Shown: positions 4,640 to 61,900 of the stretch, piece after piece
How the letters are laid out: each line of letters starts with the position of its first letter
How positions within the stretch are numbered: position 1 is the first letter of the stretch
Origin: Pelodera strongyloides
Taxonomy: Eukaryota; Nematoda; Chromadorea; Rhabditida; Rhabditidae
Reading direction: 5' to 3'
NCBI GenBank assembly: GCA_036852015.1
Contig: JAANDG010000207.1
Coordinates: forward strand, 1-64,000
Length of the DNA stretch: 64,000 nucleotides
The notes under the pieces: model-generated
What the model was told of the DNA's origin: nothing
Database searches by the model: none
What the model saw: only the letters and a program-made list of their open reading frames with translations
Made by a program: the position numbers and the translations under genes

Positions 4640-6110
4640 TAAATAATTATGAAAACCTGTTTTCGATGGTCACGCCCCTTGATAATTTTGCCTTAATAAC
4701 TTAATAATATCTAATATAAGAATTTGGATATATTGTCTCAAGAAATAGGAAAGAGGGTATAAAAGAACTATAAGAACTATATGATGGATTTCACTGACAA
4801 AATAGAAAATGACGCAGAAAAGAGGTCTAAAAATAGATATGAGCCAGCTAAATTAGTAGCTGGAAAAAATGTTTCGGGTGTCCATTAGGATAAATACAAG
4901 CTGACTAAGCAGAGAAATGAGCAAAACCATAAGTTTGAGTCTCTAATTTAATTTCTGCAATAAAAAATGATGACTAATGCATTACGAAATACAGTGAAAA
5001 ACCGGTTTTGGATAACCACGCCCAACCATTGTTTATGTAAGCTTGGGTTGTGTTGGTAAAAGACGGTCATGACTAGTAAAAATAGATATGAGGCAGATAA
5101 ATTAAGATATAGGCCAGATAAATTGTTAAGATATAGGTCAGGTAAATAGCTGGAAAAATGTTTCGATTGTTCATTAGGATAAAAATAAGCCTGCTCTAAG
5201 CAGAGAAATGAACTGAAAGCAAGTCTGAGTCTCTAATCAAATTTCTGCAGTCAATAAAAATTGATGGACAGTTTATTTCGAAATATATGAAAACCAGGGT
5301 TTCGGTGGTCACGCCCACCTTTTTTGAGTTATGTAAGTTTGGCACGGGTTGAAAAATGTCAGTCATGTCATCTGCACCGCCGCAGCTCGGTGCTCCAGGG
5401 CTCACGGTTGGGTTGTGTTGGTAAAAGTCAGTCATGAGTCAGTAATGACTAGTAAAAATGGGTATCAGTCAGATAAATTAAGATATAGGTCAGCTAAATT
5501 AATAACGGAAAAAATGTTTCGATTGTTCATTAGGATAAAAATAAGCCTGCTACAAGCATAGAAATGAACTGAAAGCAAGTCTGAGTCTCTAATTTAATTT
5601 CTGCAGTCGATAAAAATTGATGACCAGATTATTTCGAAATATATGAAAAACCGATTTTCGGTGGTCAAGCCCACCACAATTTGAGATGTAAGTGTGGCAC
5701 AGATTGAAAAATGTCAGTAATGTCATCTGTACTGCCGCAGCTCGGTGCTCCAGGGCTCACGGTTGGGTTGTTTTGGTAAAAGTCAGTCATGAGTCAGTAA
5801 TGACTAGTAAAAATATGTATCAGTTAGATAAATTAAGGTATAGGTCAGGTAAGTTAATAGCGGAAAATGTTTCGATTGTTCATTAGGATAAAAATAAGCC
5901 TGCTACAAGCTGAGAAATGAACTGAAAGAAAGTCTGAGTCTCTAATTTAATTTCTGCATTCAATAAAAAATTGATGACCAGGTTATTTCGAAATATATGA
6001 CAAACCAGTTTTCGGTGATCACGCCCACCTTTTTTTGAGTTATGTAAGTTTGGCACGGATTGAAAAATGTCAGTCATGTCATCTGTACCGCCGCAGCTCG
6101 GTGCTCCCGC
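4640..6110 (+). repeat. ~356-bp tandem array carrying copies of a gene start
   Basis: Successive units share blocks such as GGTCACGCCCACCTTTTTT, GGAAAAAATGTTTCGATTGT and GAGTCTCTAATTTAATTTCT. The ATGTCAGT...GCTCGGTGCTCC block recurs at about 5356, 5711 and 6067, giving a period of 355-357 bp; a more diverged partial unit precedes at ~4640-5040. The last unit runs into the 117-aa ORF at 6067. In the two earlier copies the same 13 codons lead into AGGGCTCACGG and a stop within about 22 codons. Confidence 0.7.
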
Positions 6111-52045: not shown

Positions 52046-52228
52046 ATGAATGTACGTGTGTCTTTGGATTGCTTCACTGTGCTAATTTTCGAGTATTTTA
52101 GTTGTCCATTATTACTCGACATTAGTTGTCCATTATTACTCTGCATGCTCTTTTTTTGTTTAGTTATTTATTGTCTTCCAATAAACCATATTATTATTAT
52201 TGTTATTATTAGAGTATCTGTTCTAGTA
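52046..52228 (+). repeat. Retroposon-like tail upstream of the BEL element
   Basis: GTTGTCCATTATTACTC is repeated (52102, 52127) and the segment ends CCAATAAACCATATTATTATTATT, like the A/T-rich tails of other retroposons here. Confidence 0.35.
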
Positions 52229-52232
52229 GCTT

Positions 52233-53174
52233 TGTGAAGATATTCTGCTATGTTAACGATTTACGCAGAATATCTCCAAATATATACTCTAATCTTTCCC
52301 GATTATAGTGTAAATTCCCGTGCTGACTCATGTCGCGCGGTCTACCGTCTCTCCCCGACACACACTCTCTCGTGTCGCGCACGCCAGACGAACAGCTGAT
52401 AATATTATGCAAACAAATTCAATATTATCCAAATCAGCAACCATCCCTCAAAGTTGCACAGCTGATAATGATAATGGGCGGAGCTTAACCTAAAAGAGCA
52501 ATTACCTCGTCATACAATAGAATACCAGAGTTATTCGGATCCGCCCTTCAGACATCCAGAGGCAGAAAGTATATAATCTCGTAATTCGCCGTTACGAGCA
52601 CTCGGTTGGTTCCCCGTACCATCGGACCTCTCAGTCATCTGAGGTTCTACTGTTTGGCCCAAGTCATCTGGGTTCGCCGCCTGCTCCAAGTCATCTGGAG
52701 CGGACTTCCCAACCCAAGCCTTCTGGGTCTACTCTTCCGTCCCCAGCTCATCTGGGATTCGCCGATCGTTCATCGTCAAGCTGCCCCGCCGCATCTTCAT
52801 CGTCTCCAAATTCCAAGTCATCTTGGTGTGGTCCAGTTCATCTGGAAATCTTCGTTGCCGTATCCGTCTCCAGCTGCTCTCATCGCAGCGCTCATCGTCT
52901 CCCGATCCCAAGTCACCTGGGAGTGTCCAGTTCATCTGGAAGCCGTCTTCATCCACCGCTGCACTCTCTGCAGCCGTTCATCTTCGCCGTGCCCAAGTCA
53001 TCTGGGCATACCAGACTTCTGGCCGTCTTCACTTCTGCCGTCTTCATTCTGCTGATTACCATATATAAAGATTGCCGTTACATTCAATAAAGATTGTATA
53101 TAAAAAGACCCGCGTGGCGCAGAGCATCGTACACATCAGAACATCGGAGCACACACACACTATATATTTTCATA
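52233..53174 (+). repeat. 5' LTR of the BEL element
   Basis: 942 bp, TGTGAAGATATTC ... TATTTTCATA. TATATAA at 52570-52576 and again at 53062-53068, a TATATAAAAA at ~53097, and AATAAA at 53086-53091 are candidate promoter and polyA signals. Compared with the 3' LTR I count four substitutions and one 4-bp gap. Confidence 0.92.
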
Positions 53175-53535
53175 TGGTGCGCCTCTCCAATTGAAGAGCA
53201 CGAGCCGCAGCAGAAGTGAATCGACTTCAGTCTTCTGAAATCACCTCAGTTCTTCTGAGAGCCCCCGTCCTCGGGCTCATCGACAGTCGGACAACCGTCG
53301 TCCGTCACTGTACTTCTGGACCGTTGTCGTCCACCGCCGTACGTCTTGTTCTTCGTCGGCATCCGTCGCCGACTACTGAATTCCAGCATTCTGGAATTAC
53401 CCTCAGCATTTCTGAGTGTCCCAGCACTTCTGGGAGTGGACAGAAGATCAACTCTACGTGTTGCTGACAAGGTCCCCGCTTTCCAGACTTCTGGGATCAA
53501 TCCTCAGTTCTTCTGAGTGTCTCAGTACTTCTGAG
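52578..53535 (+). other. Array of ~25 small covarying hairpins in LTR and leader
   Basis: Consecutive stem-loops with 3-7-bp perfect stems and mostly 6-7-nt loops. In the LTR: 52578-52598, 52630-52643 (CTCA/TGAG), 52658-52672 (CCCA/TGGG), 52683-52701 (GCTCCA/TGGAGC), 52712-52728 (ACCCA/TGGGT), 52742-52756, 52813-52826 (CCAA/TTGG), 52832-52846 (TCCA/TGGA), 52873-52889 (GCTGC/GCAGC), 52906-52922 (TCCCA/TGGGA), 52926-52940, 52958-52974, 52990-53008 (TGCCCA/TGGGCA), 53011-53022. In the leader: 53226-53239 (TTCA/TGAA), 53245-53259, 53259-53278 (GAGCCC/GGGCTC), 53288-53304 (CGGAC/GTCCG), 53355-53373 (GTCGGC/GCCGAC), 53379-53398 (AATTCCA/TGGAATT), 53402-53416, 53419-53435, 53483-53494, 53503-53517, 53521-53535. 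The usual loops are AGTCATC, GTTCATC, GTTCTTC and GCACTTC. Confidence 0.8.
53175..53183 (+). other. Candidate tRNA primer-binding site
   Basis: TGGTGCGCC directly follows the LTR; it would pair with a tRNA ending GGCGCACCA. Which tRNA is not determined. Confidence 0.5.
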
Positions 53536-53587
53536 AGTGGACTGAGTCAGAACACTCGTCAATTCCTTCGTAATCGACTCAACAAGG

Positions 53588-54967
53588 ATGACCAGCCTCG
53601 GTGTAGCCAAGGCTTCAGTGACCAAGGCCGTCACGGCTGCCGATCAGCTCCTACAAGAGCACAGCCAGTATCTCACTAACAAGCTGCAGTTCCCTCAAGA
53701 CAATGAAGAGGAAGTTCGGATGATGGTTCACGTGCAAGAATCTAAGCTCAACACTTGCATCGACAGGACCGAATCGCATCTCAAAACGATCGAAGAGAAA
53801 TATTCGAAACTGGAAGAACTTGCCGATGACCAAGATACTATTGCCGAATACTTCGAGAAAGTCGAGGAAATCCGTGGTCGACTTGAAGCAGCACGAGTGG
53901 AGTTCAAAGCCAAGCTCCACATCGTCATTGCACAGAAGGACATCACGTACCGTGCCCTCACAGCGCGTGCGAACAATGGAGAAACGTCTGATACACACTC
54001 TGCTTCTCTTGAACGCTTGATGACTACCGTCGTTCAACATCTTCGGGGTGGACAGAAGCACCAACTCCCGGTGATTCAACTACCGCAGTTCTCCGGAGAC
54101 CCGTGGGACTTCAAGAAATTCTGGTTCGGGTTTGAACAGCTGGTTCACGACAACTTCGATCTGACCGACTACGAGAAACTCACGTATCTTCGTTCCTGCC
54201 TGCGGAAAGATGCGCTGAGATTGGTCAACACCGTGCCTGATGATGAATACACCTACGAAAGGACAGTCTCCATCTTGAAAGGCAAGTACGACGACAAGCT
54301 TGCTGTGGCACACCAGCTACACAAGAAGATTCGCACTCTTCGCACACAGGATAATTATTCATCCTCAGCAAGAGACCTTCTGGAACGACTGCAACAATTG
54401 GTACCGCGTCTCACAGACTACGGTGATGCTATCGACAACCGTTCTTTCCTGACGGATCTTCTCCGCAAGTTCCCCGACCGCGTCCGCACAAAGACGCTTG
54501 AGAAGATTGAGGATTCCAGTGATGATCATCCGTGGACCTGGAAGACAATCTCGAGACTGTTGGAAAGAGTCATTGAACGGAACGAACTTCTCGAAGCTGA
54601 AACAGAAGTATTCGAATTTGAAAGCCAATCGGAAAGGCCGGAAGCACCGAGAACGAGCATGCCTCCGCCACGAACTCACCGTCGACAAGTGGATGAAAGT
54701 TGCCCATTGTGCTTCTTGTGTGAGAAGGGACCCCACCCTCCAGAACAATGCAGAAGCACTCCTTTCGTGGATCGCCGAAGCGTCATGCAGAGCAAAGGGT
54801 TGTGTTTCCGTTGTGGAGTGAACCACGACTACCGCAGCTGCCAACAACGATGTCCGAACTGCGATCGTCCGCATCACATCGCGCTCTGCAGAGACAGTCG
54901 CTCCGAGACAGAGGACAACAACGATCGAATCAACACGAAATGGCATGGGTTGCATATAGTATACTAA
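53588..54967 (+). CDS. BEL-type Gag (DUF1759 core and zinc knuckles)
   Basis: ATG at 53588 after the hairpin leader; 459 codons to TAA at 54965-54967, of which the last ten lie in an insertion. N-terminal coiled-coil-like part (residues ~35-125), then the BEL Gag signature QLPQFSGDPWDFKKFWFGFE and YEKLTYLRSCLRKDALRLV (~residues 160-260), and C-terminal zinc-knuckle-like CFRCGVNHDYRSC and CPNCDRPHHIALC preceded by a CPLCFLC cluster. Gag forms the particle that packages element RNA. The frame originally continued into the protease: at 54938 a 248-bp insertion with 6-bp direct repeats replaces the downstream codons, so Gag now ends early in foreign sequence. Confidence 0.88.
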   Translation: MTSLGVAKASVTKAVTAADQLLQEHSQYLTNKLQFPQDNEEEVRMMVHVQESKLNTCIDRTESHLKTIEEKYSKLEELADDQDTIAEYFEKVEEIRGRLEAARVEFKAKLHIVIAQKDITYRALTARANNGETSDTHSASLERLMTTVVQHLRGGQKHQLPVIQLPQFSGDPWDFKKFWFGFEQLVHDNFDLTDYEKLTYLRSCLRKDALRLVNTVPDDEYTYERTVSILKGKYDDKLAVAHQLHKKIRTLRTQDNYSSSARDLLERLQQLVPRLTDYGDAIDNRSFLTDLLRKFPDRVRTKTLEKIEDSSDDHPWTWKTISRLLERVIERNELLEAETEVFEFESQSERPEAPRTSMPPPRTHRRQVDESCPLCFLCEKGPHPPEQCRSTPFVDRRSVMQSKGLCFRCGVNHDYRSCQQRCPNCDRPHHIALCRDSRSETEDNNDRINTKWHGLHIVY

Positions 54968-55185
54968 CCACGTGCAATACCGCTTTAACGTTAAGGCGCT
55001 TCTCTCCCACAATAGCTCATTTTGCTTTGGCCCGACCTTCTTTTTTTCTAGCAGCTCTGCCTTGTATGCTCCTTATTCAGTTCATATTTATATTTTAATT
55101 TATTCTCTCCATTTCATATCACTTTTTGCGCTGCTTATGAATTTATTCGCATTTTGTAATAATAAACAAATAATAAACAAACACG
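54938..55185 (+). mobile_element. 248-bp retroposon-like insertion in the BEL element
   Basis: Bounded by the 6-bp direct repeat AACACG (54932-54937 and 55180-55185) in the same codon phase on both sides. The insert ends GTAATAATAAACAAATAATAAACAA, an A/T-rich tail like that of a SINE or short non-LTR retroposon, while the flanks are GC-richer coding DNA. It introduces stops and shifts the frame by 248 bases. An intron is unlikely because there is no GTAAG/TTTCAG pair. Confidence 0.7.
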
Positions 55186-57222
55186 CAGAGGCCACAAGAA
55201 GGATCCAACAACCGTCGCGGATCCGACCGTCCTGTGGAGAACAACACTCGAGAAACAAATCAACGCAATCATAATTCACGGTGGAACGATGGACAGAATA
55301 ATCTAAATTCTGGAGGAAATCGCACCGACCAGCCATGGCGCAATTCCCGTGAACCACCACGAAGCAATGATCCACCAAGGAACGGCAGAGCCAGCCCGAC
55401 CGAGACAGTCAACGTCACGAACGAGAATGTCAATGTGGTCACTCAGCACTTACCCTTGAGTTTCCCGATGCAGAAAGTTCGAAATCCGCCGGGTGAAGCA
55501 GTCATTCTCACGGGCATAGTTCCCGTCGTGCAACAGAACCACGCACCCGTGCCAGCACGCGCACTTTTCGACTCTGGAGCAAGCATCTCATTCATCGACT
55601 CCACACTTGTCAAGGAGCTCAACCTTCCCATAGTCGGACAACGATTCATCACACTGCAAACCTTCGGACAGAAGTCAACGGAGAGCATATACGCCATCAC
55701 ACGATTCTACCTGCTCGGTTTCGACGGAACTGTGCACGAAGTCCGAGCGGCATGCGTTCCAGGAACATTCTTCAGCAAAACTGTGATACCAGCTCTTTCC
55801 ACGACAGATCAGGAAACAATCAGAGACAGTGGAGTTCCCGTTGCCGACCCGAACCCCGATCGTCGAGAAGAACGATTCAGGATCCTCCTCGATTGTGATT
55901 TGATGTGGAATTTTGTATGCCGACAGTCAAAGGAACCTATGGAACTTCCGTCGGGGCTGAAGCTTATCCCGTCCGTCTTTGGATACCTCCGCACTGGACG
56001 CACGAAGGACGCCACGGAAGTTAATAACACTGGATCATTGCACAAAACGAATCAGTACAGGATCACCGGGACTTTGGGAACGAACCCGTTCCCCAACAAA
56101 ACCTTGAATGAACACATTCATCGAAAAGACGTCGACATCGAAGTGCCGAAGGAGTTCGAAGCATCAAGGAGAATTGATGGACGCAACTGCAACTCCTTTT
56201 CCCGACGTTCTGCATTCCAAGGCAATTGGAAAATACACAGGAGAAGCATGATTGAATTGTCTCCGAGGCCAGTCTCCCTATCTCTGGACAGACTGCGAAA
56301 TTCACCCTGTACTCCAGCATTTCACCCGCACCTTGACCCAAATTCGGCCAACCGCTTCAATGGAGATCGGCCAAGAATGGGAGCGCTCCGTCTGACATGT
56401 TTGAGCATCGCGGCAATGCTCACCTTCTTCTGCCTCACGTGCACACTTCTTCCTATTTGCGCTGCGCAGGCATTCCCATGTGCTTCAGGAGGACCCACGT
56501 TGACCACGGCAGAGAGACAAGGTGTTACCTACACCCGCTCCGTCCGTAATTATGCAGCAAGCAGCCCACGTTGCGCCCGCAATGGCTCATGCATTCTCGA
56601 CTTTTGTGGACAAGACTTGCCGTATATCACAATCGAAGAACTCGGAGGGGACAAGAACGCTTCAGGGAAAACCTACTGCACGGAAAGCAACGGATTCATC
56701 GCTAGGTATTGCTTCTTTCCAAGTGCAGGATGTCTCTTCTGGTGCGAGACGTTGGTCCCTGACTCTTGGACTGAACATGCAAATATCGAACTCACACTCG
56801 TCCAATATGGAACCACACAGACGTTCATACGACCACTCGTTCCCGATCGACAGAAAATTGTGAGTAGACATCGCATCACGGTCACGATCATTGAGAGAGA
56901 CGTCTACCCAATTTTGAACTTTCACTCCATTTCCGATGGAAACTACACCGCTGTTCTGGAGAACTCCGAAGAGCTTCACTCATGGTGTAGTGATCCGGAA
57001 GCTGCAGAAAAAGGACGTTGCCAAGCTGCCACGACTGTGCATCGTGAATGCAACCCAACACGTCGCAATACGTGTTTCAGGATCCCAAGCGCGTTCTGCC
57101 CGTTCACCACGCACACATTGTTCTCCGCGAACAAGTTGTTGCAGAGCTGGATGCGCCTGGACCCCTCATGGTTTCTCACTCCCCGCATTCTCGCACAACA
57201 ACGGAAGTCTCATCAGCTATGA
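55186..57222 (+). CDS. BEL protease (DUF1758-like) joined to an envelope-like protein; pol missing
   Basis: Open from 55179 to TGA at 57220-57222. An Asn/Arg-rich linker (to ~55420) leads to a retroviral-type aspartic protease with ALFDSGASISFID and a downstream LLDCDLMWNFV region (55545-55960). About 120 uncertain residues follow (56000-56370) where RT, RNase H and integrase should be. From ~56377 a signal-peptide-like segment (MGALRLTCLSIAAMLTFFCL) starts an extracellular Cys-rich protein of ~280 aa (CILDFCGQDLPY, CFFPSAGCLFWC, N-glycosylation sites), in the place of the envelope-like gene that some nematode BEL elements (Tas, Cer7 type) carry. No C-terminal membrane anchor is seen, so it looks truncated; the 3' LTR starts 45 bp later. 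Protease call firm, envelope call moderate. Confidence 0.75.
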   Translation, partial: QRPQEGSNNRRGSDRPVENNTRETNQRNHNSRWNDGQNNLNSGGNRTDQPWRNSREPPRSNDPPRNGRASPTETVNVTNENVNVVTQHLPLSFPMQKVRNPPGEAVILTGIVPVVQQNHAPVPARALFDSGASISFIDSTLVKELNLPIVGQRFITLQTFGQKSTESIYAITRFYLLGFDGTVHEVRAACVPGTFFSKTVIPALSTTDQETIRDSGVPVADPNPDRREERFRILLDCDLMWNFVCRQSKEPMELPSGLKLIPSVFGYLRTGRTKDATEVNNTGSLHKTNQYRITGTLGTNPFPNKTLNEHIHRKDVDIEVPKEFEASRRIDGRNCNSFSRRSAFQGNWKIHRRSMIELSPRPVSLSLDRLRNSPCTPAFHPHLDPNSANRFNGDRPRMGALRLTCLSIAAMLTFFCLTCTLLPICAAQAFPCASGGPTLTTAERQGVTYTRSVRNYAASSPRCARNGSCILDFCGQDLPYITIEELGGDKNASGKTYCTESNGFIARYCFFPSAGCLFWCETLVPDSWTEHANIELTLVQYGTTQTFIRPLVPDRQKIVSRHRITVTIIERDVYPILNFHSISDGNYTAVLENSEELHSWCSDPEAAEKGRCQAATTVHRECNPTRRNTCFRIPSAFCPFTTHTLFSANKLLQSWMRLDPSWFLTPRILAQQRKSHQL

Positions 57223-57267: not shown

Positions 57268-58213
57268 TGTGAAGATATTCTGCTATGTTAACGATTTACG
57301 CAGAATATCTCCAAATATATACTCTAATCTTTCCCGATTATAGTGTAAATTCCCGTGCTGACTCATGTCGCGCGGTCTACCGTCTCTCCCCGACACACAC
57401 TCTCTCGTGTCGCGCACGCCAGACGAACAGCTGATAATATTATGCAAACAAATTCAATATTATCCAAATCAGCAACCATCCCTCAAAGTTGCACAGCTGA
57501 TAATGATAATGGGCGGAGCTTAACCTAAAAGAGCAATTACCTCGTCATACAATAGAATACCAGAGTTATTCGGATCCGCCCTTCAGACATCCAGAGGCAG
57601 AAAGTATATAATCTCGTAATTCGCCGTTACGAGCACTCGGTTGGTTCCCCGTACCATCGGACCTCTCAGTCATCTGAGGTTCTACTGTTTGGCCCAAGTC
57701 ATCTGGGTTCGCCGCCTGCTCCAAGTCATCTGGAGCGGACTTCCCAACCCAAGCCTTCTGGGTCTACTCTTCCGTCCCCAGCTCATCTGGGATTCGCCAA
57801 TCGTTCATCGTCAAGCTGCCCCGCCGCAGCTGTCTTCATCGTCTCCAAATTCCAAGTCATCTTGGTGTGGTCCAGTTCATCTGGAAATCTTCGGTGCCGT
57901 ATCCGTCTCCAGCTGCTCTCATCGCAGCGCTCATCGTCTCCCGATCCCAAGTCATCTGGGAGTGTCCAGTTCATCTGGAAGCCGTCTTCATCCACCGCTG
58001 CACTCTCTGCAGCCGTTCATCTTCGCCGTGCCCAAGTCATCTGGGCATACCAGACTTCTGGCCGTCTTCACTTCTGCCGTCTTCATTCTGCTGATTACCA
58101 TATATAAAGATTGCCGTTACATTCAATAAAGATTGTATATAAAAAGACCCGCGTGGCGCAGAGCATCGTACACATCAGAACATCGGAGCACACACACACT
58201 GTATATTTTCATA
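57268..58213 (+). repeat. 3' LTR of the BEL element
   Basis: 946 bp, the same hairpin array as the 5' LTR. Differences are concentrated at 57800, 57827-57831 (4-bp gain), 57894, 57955 and 58201. Confidence 0.92.
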
Positions 58214-58218
58214 AGCTT

Positions 58219-58930: not shown

Positions 58931-61900
58931 ATGAACGTGTTCTTGTCGGCCGTTTTTCTTCTTCTATGCCAAACAATACAAGAATCGGACTGTATTGTTA
59001 TTGAAGTAAGTGAAGACGTGGAGGATATTATAAACCGAACAGACATATACATGGAACCCGTCGGTGAGATTAAAATTGTAAAGACGTTTTACATAATCAT
59101 AACCACTAAACTTATATGTTTTACATGTTATGTTCACTGTGTGTTATGTGCATTTTTTGTTCACTGTGTGTTATGTGCATTTTCGTCTTTTTATGTGGTT
59201 TAACAATAAAAAATGTATCATATATATATCAGCACGTAGTCCAGGAGCAGGAGGGACAGCGAGGTGTTGTCTTTTCCATATTACAGATTTTCGTTGCTAC
59301 GATTCTGCATTTAATGATGATTTCGATTTTGTTATGTACTTTGTTCAAATTGGATACGCATTAAAGATTGACCAATATAATGAGCAACTTGCATGTAGTG
59401 GATATGCAAAACAGAAATATCCGATACTTACTGGAACCGATCCGATGATGGTTAGTTTATTTGAAAGTTTAAACATTTTATTTGAATGAGGTCATAGGAA
59501 CTTAGGGCACATTCGGGATTGACCGAAAGGAAAGAAAAGAAAGTCTCTGCTTGTCTGGTATCTCTCACACCAGCATATTTCAGTTTTAAAATTTTAAAAT
59601 ATTTCCTTTCGTCCATCCCGAACGACATTTTTTCTTTTCTTTCTTTTCGCAATCCAACGCGCCGTTAAGGTAATGGATTTAACTCAACTCTGTATAGAAA
59701 AGAGAGGGACCGGGGCTGGGTGCCTACCAACCATTCAAGTGATCTTGCTTTTCGTGCAAAGCACAAGATATTTCCTCATTAGAGCAGGCGTAGGCTTACT
59801 TCCTAACTACGCGGGTCCGACTTGTATTCAATGAATGGCCCAAGTTGACTACTTGTTTTTCAGCCATACTACATCAACACCCTGCATAAAGGCATAGCCC
59901 TAGCAATCGAAAGACGAACTTTTGTGAAGAGGAATACTCCACTACAACGTAGAAAGGGATACTGCGCGAAAATAGAATTGGTCAGTACGCATTGTAAATA
60001 GTAAATAGTAAATAGTAAATCGACCCGGAACCCATTCACCCCACCAAAGGTGTAAAATTTGGTTGCTGGGTAAAACTGGCGGAGGTAAATCGGCTTCTTG
60101 AGAAAATTGGCCTCTGGTAAGTTTAAAGTTTAAAGGCCAGTTCGTCCGGCTTCAGAAGTGAACCGGTCCCCGGTGCACCGTTTCTGCGGATTCGGTTAAT
60201 CGACGTTTTTACCTAATTTCAATTTTTCCTCCTCATTCTCTACTCGGAAACCCTTCAGCTATACATACGCAGACAGAAGCGGAATTGTCTCTAGAGGCAA
60301 GTTGTCTCCAGAGAAATTTTACCCACGAATGGTGAATACCGAAATCTTTAGATCGCGTCGGTTTTCCCCGAATACTGGGAGAAATTCCACAGCCAAAGCG
60401 ATTTATGCGGGGTAACAAGCCTTTTCGTTTACATCATAGGTATGTGTATGTGCGTGTGTGCGTGTGTGTGGGCTTGTGATTGTAGTTTGTGGGTAGGCAT
60501 GTGAACGACCCTGAACATAACTCGTATTATTTGTGAGTAATTGTTTTCAGCGATATAACGATCGGTTTATGAAGCATACGTTTTACTACGTTCTGAAAAC
60601 CAGTTGGTATGCCGCTTCACCGTGGCTTCGGTACTAAATGCTCTGAACTATCAAAAGGACAACATTTATTCCAGAAGATTGTGGGGTTCATCAAACTATG
60701 CCACCAATTTCGACAAATGCGAGAGTTGTTTACTGCAAAACTTCTCGAAAAACTTTGTCTTGACGAAGTTGGATGTTATAATGTCATGAAGTTTTATGAT
60801 GACGACCTACCATATTGCGTGAAAAATACGGCAATTGAGGAATTTAAGGTTAGTTACAAAGAACTATATAAAAGAGACAGACGTACGGTTAAAGACCCGT
60901 CAAAGGAGATCTAATCCCTGCCAGATGCCACAATAATTTCGTCATTTTTATTTGATTTTCATTAGGAAGATTTGAACAAAATACCGCACCCTAGAGCAGG
61001 TTACAAAAAACGAACTCGGAGAGAGAAATCACTGCGTAACTGGGAGTTACTGGATTACAGTAAACGCAATTGCCCGGGTAGCGGCTTATATCCTGCGGAT
61101 TTACACTTGGGATGTGCTATCACTTCAGGGTATTCACCATCTACCGCAACCAGGGCAATTGCTTGCATACACAATCTATTGTTTTCAAATCCCATTCTCA
61201 GTGACTTATCTCCCTGAGTTCGTTTTCCCGCTAATTGCTACTGCTACCGAATTTTTCTTCACATCGTCCTATATTTAATGAAAATCAAATAATAATGACG
61301 AACTTATTGTGACTGCGTTCCTTTAAAGGAACGCAGTCACTACAAATTCGTATTTTATTTGCTTTTCATTAAATATTCAAAAATGGGAAGAAAACTACTA
61401 TTCCAGCACCAAAGTACGGCAAAACGAACTCAGGGAGAGAAATCCCTGTGTATGAGTTTTACTAGTATACCGTAGTTTATAATTGCCCGTATAGAGTTTC
61501 ATAATAAATACCCTGCAGTGATAAACCACGCGCCAGTTGTAACACTGCAGGCTGTTCACTCTCCAAGTACCCCTGGCAATTGCATATATGCACCGGCGAC
61601 GGTCATTTACCAAAACCCATTTTCATTGATTTCTCTCCCTGAGTTCGCTTTTATGTGACTTTTTACTGGCTGCATATTGTTTTATAAATCTTCTTACATC
61701 TAATAAAAATCGAATAAAAAAGTTGAATTTGAAGTGACTGCCTTCCTTTAAAGCGAAATACCGGCCGCTTTTTGAAACGCATCGAGTAGGAAAGAATTCT
61801 TACTGAGGTTTCACTTTAAAGGAGGTTTCTGGGCCCTGGTATAAGAACGCGCGGGAATTTGAAACTATACTACCTATCTTATTACCCAATTAAAACTCAA

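What the first reader, a model, noticed from the sequence alone, without database searches (positions are those of the whole stretch)
52578..53535. About 25 consecutive mini-hairpins with covarying stems and a shared loop in a retrotransposon LTR and leader
Seen directly: from ~52578 to 53535, stem-loops follow one another with stems that differ (CTCA/TGAG, CCAA/TTGG, GCTCCA/TGGAGC, ACCCA/TGGGT, TGCCCA/TGGGCA, GTCGGC/GCCGAC, CGGAC/GTCCG, AATTCCA/TGGAATT) yet stay complementary, while loops repeat a consensus (AGTCATC, GTTCATC, GTTCTTC, GCACTTC). Compensatory change around a constant loop is the usual sign of selection on a fold. The array spans the R/U5-like part of the LTR and the leader, stopping ~50 nt before the gag ATG; the 3' LTR repeats the first half. 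Inference: a multivalent RNA element bound by Gag or a host protein for packaging, translation or silencing escape, spread by duplication of a hairpin unit. I know of no described nematode LTR feature like it.
Basis: partly seen in the sequence, partly recalled or inferred. Interest (0 to 1): 0.88.

Follow-up and report, generated by a model that had tools for sequence, protein, structure and literature searches.

The report
Covarying mini-hairpin array before gag
A nematode BEL retrotransposon carries about 25 short sequences, predicted to fold into small hairpins, in front of its gag gene; their paired arms differ from one hairpin to the next in a matched way, and they likely act as repeated RNA docking sites, perhaps for the element's own Gag protein when it packages its genome.

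Summary
Between 52578 and 53536 there are 27 perfect mini-stems (23 different arm pairs) in two arrays: one in the R part of a BEL LTR, one in the leader between primer-binding site and gag. Stems of at least 5 bp (loops 5-8 nt) number 20 against about 3 in shuffles. Choosing sites by loop motif alone, 16 of 73 have arms matched over at least 4 bp, against 1.3 when arms are re-dealt (0 of 1000). R stems vary less than R loops and spacers between genomic copies (0 of 482 mask shifts reach it); in the leader this is weak. Most of the few stem changes between copies are not compensated. The predicted R-plus-leader RNA has 1 ATG against 11.3 in shuffles, as expected of a scanned 5' UTR. The two nearest sister families (Gag 50% and 45% identical) also have repeat arrays before gag, of unrelated sequence; the 45% one shows matched outer stems. 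I read this as a selected, fast-turning multivalent RNA element, most likely read by the element's own Gag (inferred, untested). New variant of a known kind (structured retroelement leaders).

The parts
52228..52232 (.). 5-bp target-site duplication AGCTT (second copy at 58214-58218)
52233..53174 (+). 5' LTR (TGTGAAG...TTTTCATA)
   Evidence: repeats D1/D2; ends from comparison with the 3' LTR and the target-site duplication
52570..52576 (+). TATA-like TATATAA; transcript start predicted about 25-30 nt on, near 52600
   Evidence: start site inferred, no RNA data
52578..53022 (+). Array 1, R region: 15 mini-stems starting at 52578, 52607, 52630, 52658, 52683, 52712, 52742, 52813, 52832, 52873, 52906, 52926, 52958, 52990, 53011 (the first may lie just upstream of the transcript start)
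53086..53091 (+). AATAAA, probable poly(A) signal, so array 1 probably lies in R and at both ends of the transcript
   Evidence: inferred
53175..53198 (+). primer-binding site TGGTGCGCC...; the stem 53183-53198 is probably the complement of a tRNA T arm
   Evidence: read; tRNA not identified
53226..53536 (+). Array 2, leader: 12 mini-stems starting at 53226, 53246, 53259, 53288, 53317, 53355, 53379, 53402, 53419, 53483, 53503, 53520
53588..54967 (+). gag, DUF1759 (PF03564, E 2.8e-18); C-terminal Cys/His clusters resembling zinc knuckles, not confirmed by Pfam
55177..57222 (+). open frame (stop to stop) with aspartyl protease and Phlebovirus_G2 domains
57268..58213 (+). 3' LTR; repeats array 1

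Best explanation
The two arrays are rows of mini-hairpin sequences, partly grown by duplication, whose arms differ from hairpin to hairpin in matched fashion around a 7-nt loop with a shared 3' half (about RNTCNTC), and they are predicted to form in the genomic RNA and to act as a multivalent docking element, likely read by the element's own Gag to choose its RNA for packaging. Shown: matched arms beyond chance, slower change of R stems between copies, near absence of ATG from the predicted transcript start to gag. Shown for relatives: the two nearest sister families, one locus of each read, also carry repeat arrays before gag, of unrelated sequence. Inferred: the array is transcribed as R plus leader, is scanned by ribosomes (each stem is short enough to be melted), and gains avidity by repeated weak sites.
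For: Enrichment over shuffles. Loop-anchored test: 16 of 73 sites with at least 4 matched arm pairs, 1.27 with arms re-dealt, 0 of 1000; gag 0 of 53, U3 0 of 17, window 30-52 kb 3 of 772. Pair types vary at arm positions 1-4. Folding limited to 25-nt spans: z -5.5 (R) and -4.5 (leader), 0 of 100 shuffles each; gag -1.5 and -1.3, U3 -1.8. R stems: 30 of 154 columns vary, against 115 of 329 others over 18 other LTR copies; 0 of 482 circular shifts of the mask do as well, 2 of 482 without the five most diverged copies. One ATG in 988 nt against 11.3 in shuffles (0 of 300 as low); L064 leader, L059 leader part and L068 leader 1, 1 and 0 against 5.7, 14.9 and 7.8. Sister family C132 (Gag 45% identical): true arm pairs of its type-A units anneal better than re-dealt ones (6 of 720 arrangements do as well, the identity and ties among near-identical units included; type B 2 of 24); leader span-60 z -5.2. 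Sister C61 (Gag 50%): 158-nt repeat structured on the + strand only (z -4.45 against +0.43). The R of this copy is nearly identical to that of the C810 lineage while U3 and the rest differ by 6-9%, the pattern expected if two co-packaged RNAs of different lineages took part in first strand transfer.
Against: No RNA, binding or packaging data. Between copies most stem changes are uncompensated: R 28 distinct changes, of which 5 one-sided G-U and 1 two-sided G-U keep a pair and 22 do not; leader 18, of which 6 keep a pair. In the leader the slower change of stems is not significant over all 7 copies (150 of 344 shifts) or over L010-L014 (89 of 344) and only suggestive for one lineage (L012 13 of 344, L012-L014 33 of 344). 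Both strands fold about equally well in the window's own arrays, so they do not themselves show that RNA is the target. With spans up to 60 the U3 control is also structured (z -3.8, 0 of 100), more than the R (-2.2) and leader (-2.9) arrays on the + strand. Loops hold G mainly at their first two positions, whereas retroviral nucleocapsid zinc knuckles favour exposed G (recalled). The second C61 repeat (77 nt) folds worse than shuffles (z +5.1) and the L068 39-nt array is not clearly structured (z -1.75 and -0.38), so not every array before gag is a hairpin array. Zinc knuckle of Gag not confirmed (PF14787 E 0.33).
Confidence: 0.42

Rival explanations
1. The array is a docking element for a host RNA-binding protein that promotes nuclear export or translation of the unspliced RNA (as the constitutive transport element of Mason-Pfizer monkey virus does through NXF1).
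For: A nematode LTR element, Cer1, needs a dedicated factor for export of its genomic RNA, and that paper cites an MPMV RNA structure that binds NXF1 directly (PMC10309623, start of abstract and passages). TCATC occurs 15 times in R plus leader against 4.7 in shuffles, and pyrimidine-rich words of this sort resemble sites of known cellular RNA-binding proteins (recalled). ATG depletion shows that the region behaves as a translated leader.
Against: A host reader is constant, yet the sister families have unrelated arrays.
Confidence: 0.22
2. Neutral minisatellite: a short palindromic unit multiplied by slippage, and template switching during reverse transcription copied one arm onto the other, so matched arms arise without selection on a fold.
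For: Part of the array is tandem (about 86-nt units, 13 matches to one hairpin in C156); compensated changes between copies at one site are nearly absent.
Against: R stems change less than loops and spacers; the excess of matched arms is not seen in gag, U3 or 22 kb of flanking window. ATG depletion shows constraint on the region, though not on the stems.
Confidence: 0.2
3. Terminal hairpins keep the genomic RNA from receiving a spliced leader, which would destroy R.
For: The genome has tandem SL1 genes with the canonical 22-nt SL1 (canonical sequence recalled); C. elegans mRNAs that escape trans-splicing have 5'-terminal hairpins, e.g. of 7 and 6 bp in vit-2 (PMC9984361, abstract and section 8); a 7-bp stem lies at 52578-52598 near the predicted start.
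Against: One or two terminal hairpins would do; 27 over a kilobase are not explained. TTTCAG is absent but is expected only 0.5 times.
Confidence: 0.08
4. DNA-level array of binding sites for a transcription factor or insulator protein, as the Su(Hw) sites in the gypsy leader (recalled); CATCTG in many R hairpins is an E-box.
For: Downstream-of-start position and repetition; folds equally on both strands.
Against: Outer arms are matched although no constant DNA word is kept there; the leader hairpins have no CATCTG; ATG is depleted while its reverse complement CAT is common.
Confidence: 0.06

Closest known systems
Belpaoviridae (Bel/Pao LTR retroelements) of nematodes, such as Atlas virus of the hookworm
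   Same: DUF1759 Gag, aspartyl protease, phlebovirus-like G2 envelope domain and LTRs here; Atlas virus has a Gag-Pol-Env polyprotein with a phlebovirus-like Env (PMC9094657, passages)
   Different: LTR of 942-946 nt here against 271 nt in Atlas virus; word searches of PMC3118150 (no hit for hairpin, stem-loop, leader, tandem repeat) and PMC9094657 (hairpin once, for a protein) show no such array
Retroviral psi/leader packaging regions (HIV-1 SL1-SL3, MLV GACG-loop hairpins, MMTV purine loop; details recalled, listings)
   Same: hairpins between PBS and gag
   Different: about 25 short hairpins partly grown by tandem duplication, pyrimidine-rich loops, a second array in R; Gag binding unknown
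Multiple dispersed packaging signals of ssRNA viruses (MS2, STNV)
   Same: many stem-loops contacting the coat protein as the model (PMC6281560, PMC4751978 and PMC3593212, search listing with start of abstract only)
   Different: there dispersed over the genome and bound by coat protein; here clustered at one end and binding untested
Ty1 5' TIPIRT domain
   Same: 5' RNA region joining translation initiation, packaging and start of reverse transcription (PMC5454406, search listing with start of abstract)
   Different: kissing loops there (title), no repeat array known to me
MPMV constitutive transport element
   Same: RNA structure read for export of unspliced RNA (cited in a passage of PMC10309623)
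   Different: one element near the 3' end (recalled), not an array in R and leader

Membership tests
Bel/Pao (Belpaoviridae) element | Gag with DUF1759 | tested here: met
   PF03564 E 2.8e-18; that this domain marks Bel/Pao Gag is recalled
Bel/Pao (Belpaoviridae) element | LTRs, target-site duplication, tRNA-type primer-binding site | tested here: met
   primer tRNA not identified
Bel/Pao (Belpaoviridae) element | reverse transcriptase, RNase H and integrase | tested here: not met
   no such domain in the two long frames scanned and only 4.1 kb between the LTRs; three contigs have R matches about 10.5 kb apart. By Gag this copy descends from Bel/Pao; it is not a complete element
Retroviral-type packaging signal | structured RNA in the leader upstream of gag | tested here: met
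   by prediction only:
Retroviral-type packaging signal | bound by own Gag and needed for packaging | not testable with these tools
   needs binding and packaging assays
Retroviral-type packaging signal | Gag with CCHC zinc knuckle | tested here: inconclusive
   Cys/His clusters read in the Gag C terminus; Pfam zf-CCHC_5 only E 0.33
Conserved RNA fold with covariation | matched changes between paralogous units | tested here: met
Conserved RNA fold with covariation | two-sided compensated changes at orthologous pairs | tested here: not met
   no two-sided Watson-Crick change in the 27 stems kept, one two-sided change to G-U, one to a mismatch; one two-sided Watson-Crick change fell in the discarded stem 52763
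Rfam family | match above gathering score | tested here: not met
   0 matches in the window
Gypsy-type leader insulator (DNA) | repeated constant DNA word bound by a zinc-finger protein | tested here: inconclusive
   TCATC recurs but the arms vary; binding not testable

The most novel reading that the evidence does not exclude
BEL retroelements of one nematode carry a replaceable RNA bar code: each lineage grows its own array of self-matched hairpins in front of gag by tandem duplication, keeps the pairing while the letters drift, and is recognised by its own Gag, so the hairpin code and its reader change together and separate the packaging of lineages that share one germ line.
Probability: 0.27. 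Interest if true: 0.82.

Novelty: new variant of a known kind. Interest (0 to 1): 0.62.

Why it matters
In the rows listed by my paper searches I saw no description of how Bel/Pao elements pick their own RNA. A leader with some 25 interchangeable hairpins, and sister families with arrays of unrelated sequence in the same place, would make packaging specificity and its evolution testable within one genome, and would be a natural case of multivalent RNA recognition built by duplication.

Tried and rejected
Whole-region folding energy as the test: weak for R, and in 300-nt windows with spans up to 60 the window's own array is not outstanding (z + of -0.7 to -2.9); at that span U3 folds better than the arrays. 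The signal is in short stems. Compensation between orthologous copies: mostly absent. G-U against A-C asymmetry as proof of RNA: inconclusive (between copies 6 and 8 in R, 6 and 4 in the leader; first pair outside the stems 5 and 4, second pair outside 6 and 2). Protein homologues of Gag: one distant hit, from Ptiloglossa arizonensis, 24% identical. Rfam: none. L068-type 39-nt array and the 77-nt C61 repeat as hairpin arrays: not supported by folding. CGGTG loops as a shared BEL hairpin: seen in several families, not pursued. Loop GTCATC as antisense to the gag start GATGAC: GATGAC also occurs at two more gag sites and the leader loops do not fit; set aside. Searches read some reverse-strand loci in the wrong orientation (thereby lost L004, L005, L007, L008 and others; one search took the wrong side of the reverse-strand loci); corrected from then on, and no count in this report rests on the wrong ones (one search listed L060 and other loci unflipped, as told under noticed items). 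One search stopped on a wrong coordinate and was rerun. The loop motif was chosen after I had seen the loops.

Full report
What is there. The window holds an LTR element of the Bel/Pao group: LTRs 52233-53174 and 57268-58213, target-site duplication AGCTT, primer-binding site from 53175, a DUF1759 gag at 53588-54967, and a frame with an aspartyl protease and a phlebovirus-G2 domain. No reverse transcriptase or integrase was found in the two long frames scanned and only 4.1 kb lie between the LTRs, whereas on three other contigs R matches lie about 10.5 kb apart; this copy is probably shortened. The genome (160 Mb, unnamed) has 32 SL1-like matches, below Rfam's gathering score, many in tandem; the two genes read carry the canonical 22-nt SL1 (canonical sequence recalled), so I take it for a nematode.

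The hairpins. After dropping a stem in the primer-binding site and one broken in 16 of 18 other copies (kept in L023, not covered in L026), 27 perfect stems of 4-8 bp remain, 15 in R and 12 in the leader, with 23 distinct arm pairs. Stems of at least 5 bp with loops of 5-8 nt number 10 in each array against 1.2 and 1.5 in shuffles, 0 of 200 each; gag and U3 are not clearly enriched. To avoid choosing by the stems themselves, I took every NNN[CT]NTC in the two arrays (73 sites) and asked how often its flanks pair: 16 pair over at least 4 positions, against 1.27 when right arms are re-dealt among the sites (0 of 1000); in gag 0 of 53, in U3 0 of 17, in 22 kb of window 3 of 772. The motif was chosen after seeing the loops, but it names no arm letter. 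Without asking for the motif, 22 stems of at least 4 bp with a 7-nt gap are found, 16 of which have it. The loop reads about RNTCNTC; where its first and last letters are G and C the stem can be one pair longer.

Is the fold selected? For: with spans of at most 25 nt, z is -5.5 for R and -4.5 for the leader (0 of 100 shuffles each), gag -1.5 and -1.3, U3 -1.8. Over 18 other LTR copies (this element's own 3' LTR and both LTRs of three other elements among them, so not all independent), 30 of 154 stem columns of R vary against 115 of 329 others; no circular shift of the stem mask does as well (0 of 482), and 2 of 482 without the five most diverged copies. Against: of 28 distinct stem changes in R only 6 keep a standard pair, and of 18 in the leader only 6; there is no two-sided Watson-Crick replacement. 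Many of these copies may be dead, which would explain breaks, but I did not sort live from dead. In the leader the stem mask is no better than shifted ones over 7 copies (150 of 344) or over L010-L014 (89 of 344), and 13 of 344 for L012 alone, 33 of 344 for L012-L014. The whole-R fold is unremarkable (z -1.6), and with spans up to 60 U3 folds better against its shuffles (z -3.8) than R (-2.2) or leader (-2.9). 18 of 27 stems have median pair probability of at least 0.5 in an unrestricted fold, 19 of 27 with spans up to 100.

Is it RNA? From the predicted start to gag (988 nt) there is 1 ATG, at 53174 where LTR and primer-binding site meet, against 11.3 in shuffles (0 of 300 as low), while CAT occurs 28 times; U3 (5 against 5.9) and 1 kb downstream of the element (28 against 28.4) show no such loss. 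This is the mark expected of a leader scanned by ribosomes and suggests that both arrays are transcribed. The window's own stems are Watson-Crick perfect and fold on either strand, so they do not add to this; the 158-nt repeat of the sister family C61 folds on the + strand only (z -4.45 against +0.43).

Growth. Several R copies are longer than this one by about one unit of 86 nt, each unit with three stems; the C156 copy has 13 matches (10 exact, 3 with one mismatch) to one 15-nt hairpin. In the whole genome that pattern with up to one mismatch has 49 hits per strand against 2 for the reversed control.

Relatives. A search with the Gag domain scored 150 matches of 179 candidates. Among the loci held, the nearest other families are C61/C206/C695 (Gag 50% identical) and C132/C398 (45%). 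I read one locus of each: both have repeat arrays that end just before gag, of unrelated sequence. In C132, core-anchored units have outer arms that anneal better with their own partner than with others: 6 of 720 arrangements do as well for type A (the identity and ties of near-identical units) and 2 of 24 for type B; span-60 z is -5.2, span-25 z only -0.6, so these are longer hairpins. In C61 one repeat is structured and the next is less structured than shuffles (z +5.1). A more distant family (L068) has a 39-nt array that does not clearly beat shuffles (z -1.75 and -0.38). Of 28 other loci examined, 11 have at least one 300-nt window, within the 1.5 kb upstream of the Gag domain, with z of -3 or lower on the + strand; the loci are not all independent families and windows were tested with 30 shuffles each.

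Mosaic R. Against the C810 copy this one differs by 26 of 294 in 52233-52532, 3 of 600 from 52533 to 53132, and 81 of 1425 in the rest compared. Two of the three middle differences lie beyond the TATA region (52764, 52916), and there this 5' LTR stands alone among the 8 loci compared. Such an R, swapped between lineages with U3 and the body left, is what first strand transfer between two co-packaged RNAs would give; this is inference, and gene conversion is not excluded.

Mechanism. I commit to a multivalent RNA docking element, likely read by Gag. Its place, repetition and melting-friendly stem length fit a packaging region in a scanned leader; the replacement of the repeat sequences between sister families fits a reader that evolves with the element better than a constant host protein. 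The host-factor reading (export or translation) and a neutral origin by slippage and template switching are the serious rivals; protection from spliced-leader addition may explain the first hairpin but not the array.

Literature. Searches for nematode or BEL leaders with hairpins, repeated stem-loops in LTR elements, packaging signals, and Bel/Pao envelopes showed nothing like it in the rows listed (20 of 280 papers listed; 59: 15 of 225; 65: 3 of 3; 66: 10 of 10; 73: 12 of 78; 74: 12 of 17; 78: 3 of 3; 79: 8 of 16; 84: 8 of 28). In PMC3118150, PMC9094657 and PMC10309623 I looked only at passages found by word, in PMC9984361 at the abstract and section 8; the other papers named were seen in listings only. 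The library lacks most subscription journals, so absence from print is not shown.

Noticed in passing
52233-54560 against L003, L011: R tract nearly identical to the C810 copy between U3 and leader that differ by 6-9%: a mosaic LTR suggesting co-packaging of two lineages.
   Followed up: partly
53588-57222: Probably shortened element: Gag, then protease and phlebovirus-G2 domain in one open frame; no RT or integrase domain in the frames scanned.
   Followed up: partly
L031 (C156:223800-226700): LTR-like locus with a strongly expanded R array, 13 matches to one hairpin.
   Followed up: partly
L053, about 129-380 counted on the reverse strand of the locus: Four copies of an 8-bp hairpin GACAATGA-gtagaag-TCATTGTC (one with loop gtataag) with about 75-nt spacing upstream of another BEL gag; z -9.1 on + and -11.8 on - in the first 300 nt.
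   Followed up: no
L049, L050, L051, L060, L063, L068-L070: Hairpins with loop (A/T)CGGTG and differing stems near the LTR end or leader of several BEL families (L060 seen only on the strand opposite to gag).
   Followed up: no
52658, 52907, 52992: Three R hairpins share CCCAAGT with the SL1 exon; may be chance.
   Followed up: no
53587-53592: GATGAC at the gag start is complementary to the GTCATC loops of R; also present at 53825 and 54019.
   Followed up: partly
61186-61753: A 143-nt direct repeat (72%) and inverted arms of 106 nt (75%) downstream of the element.
   Followed up: no
5126-6107: 356-nt tandem repeat, 2.8 copies.
   Followed up: no
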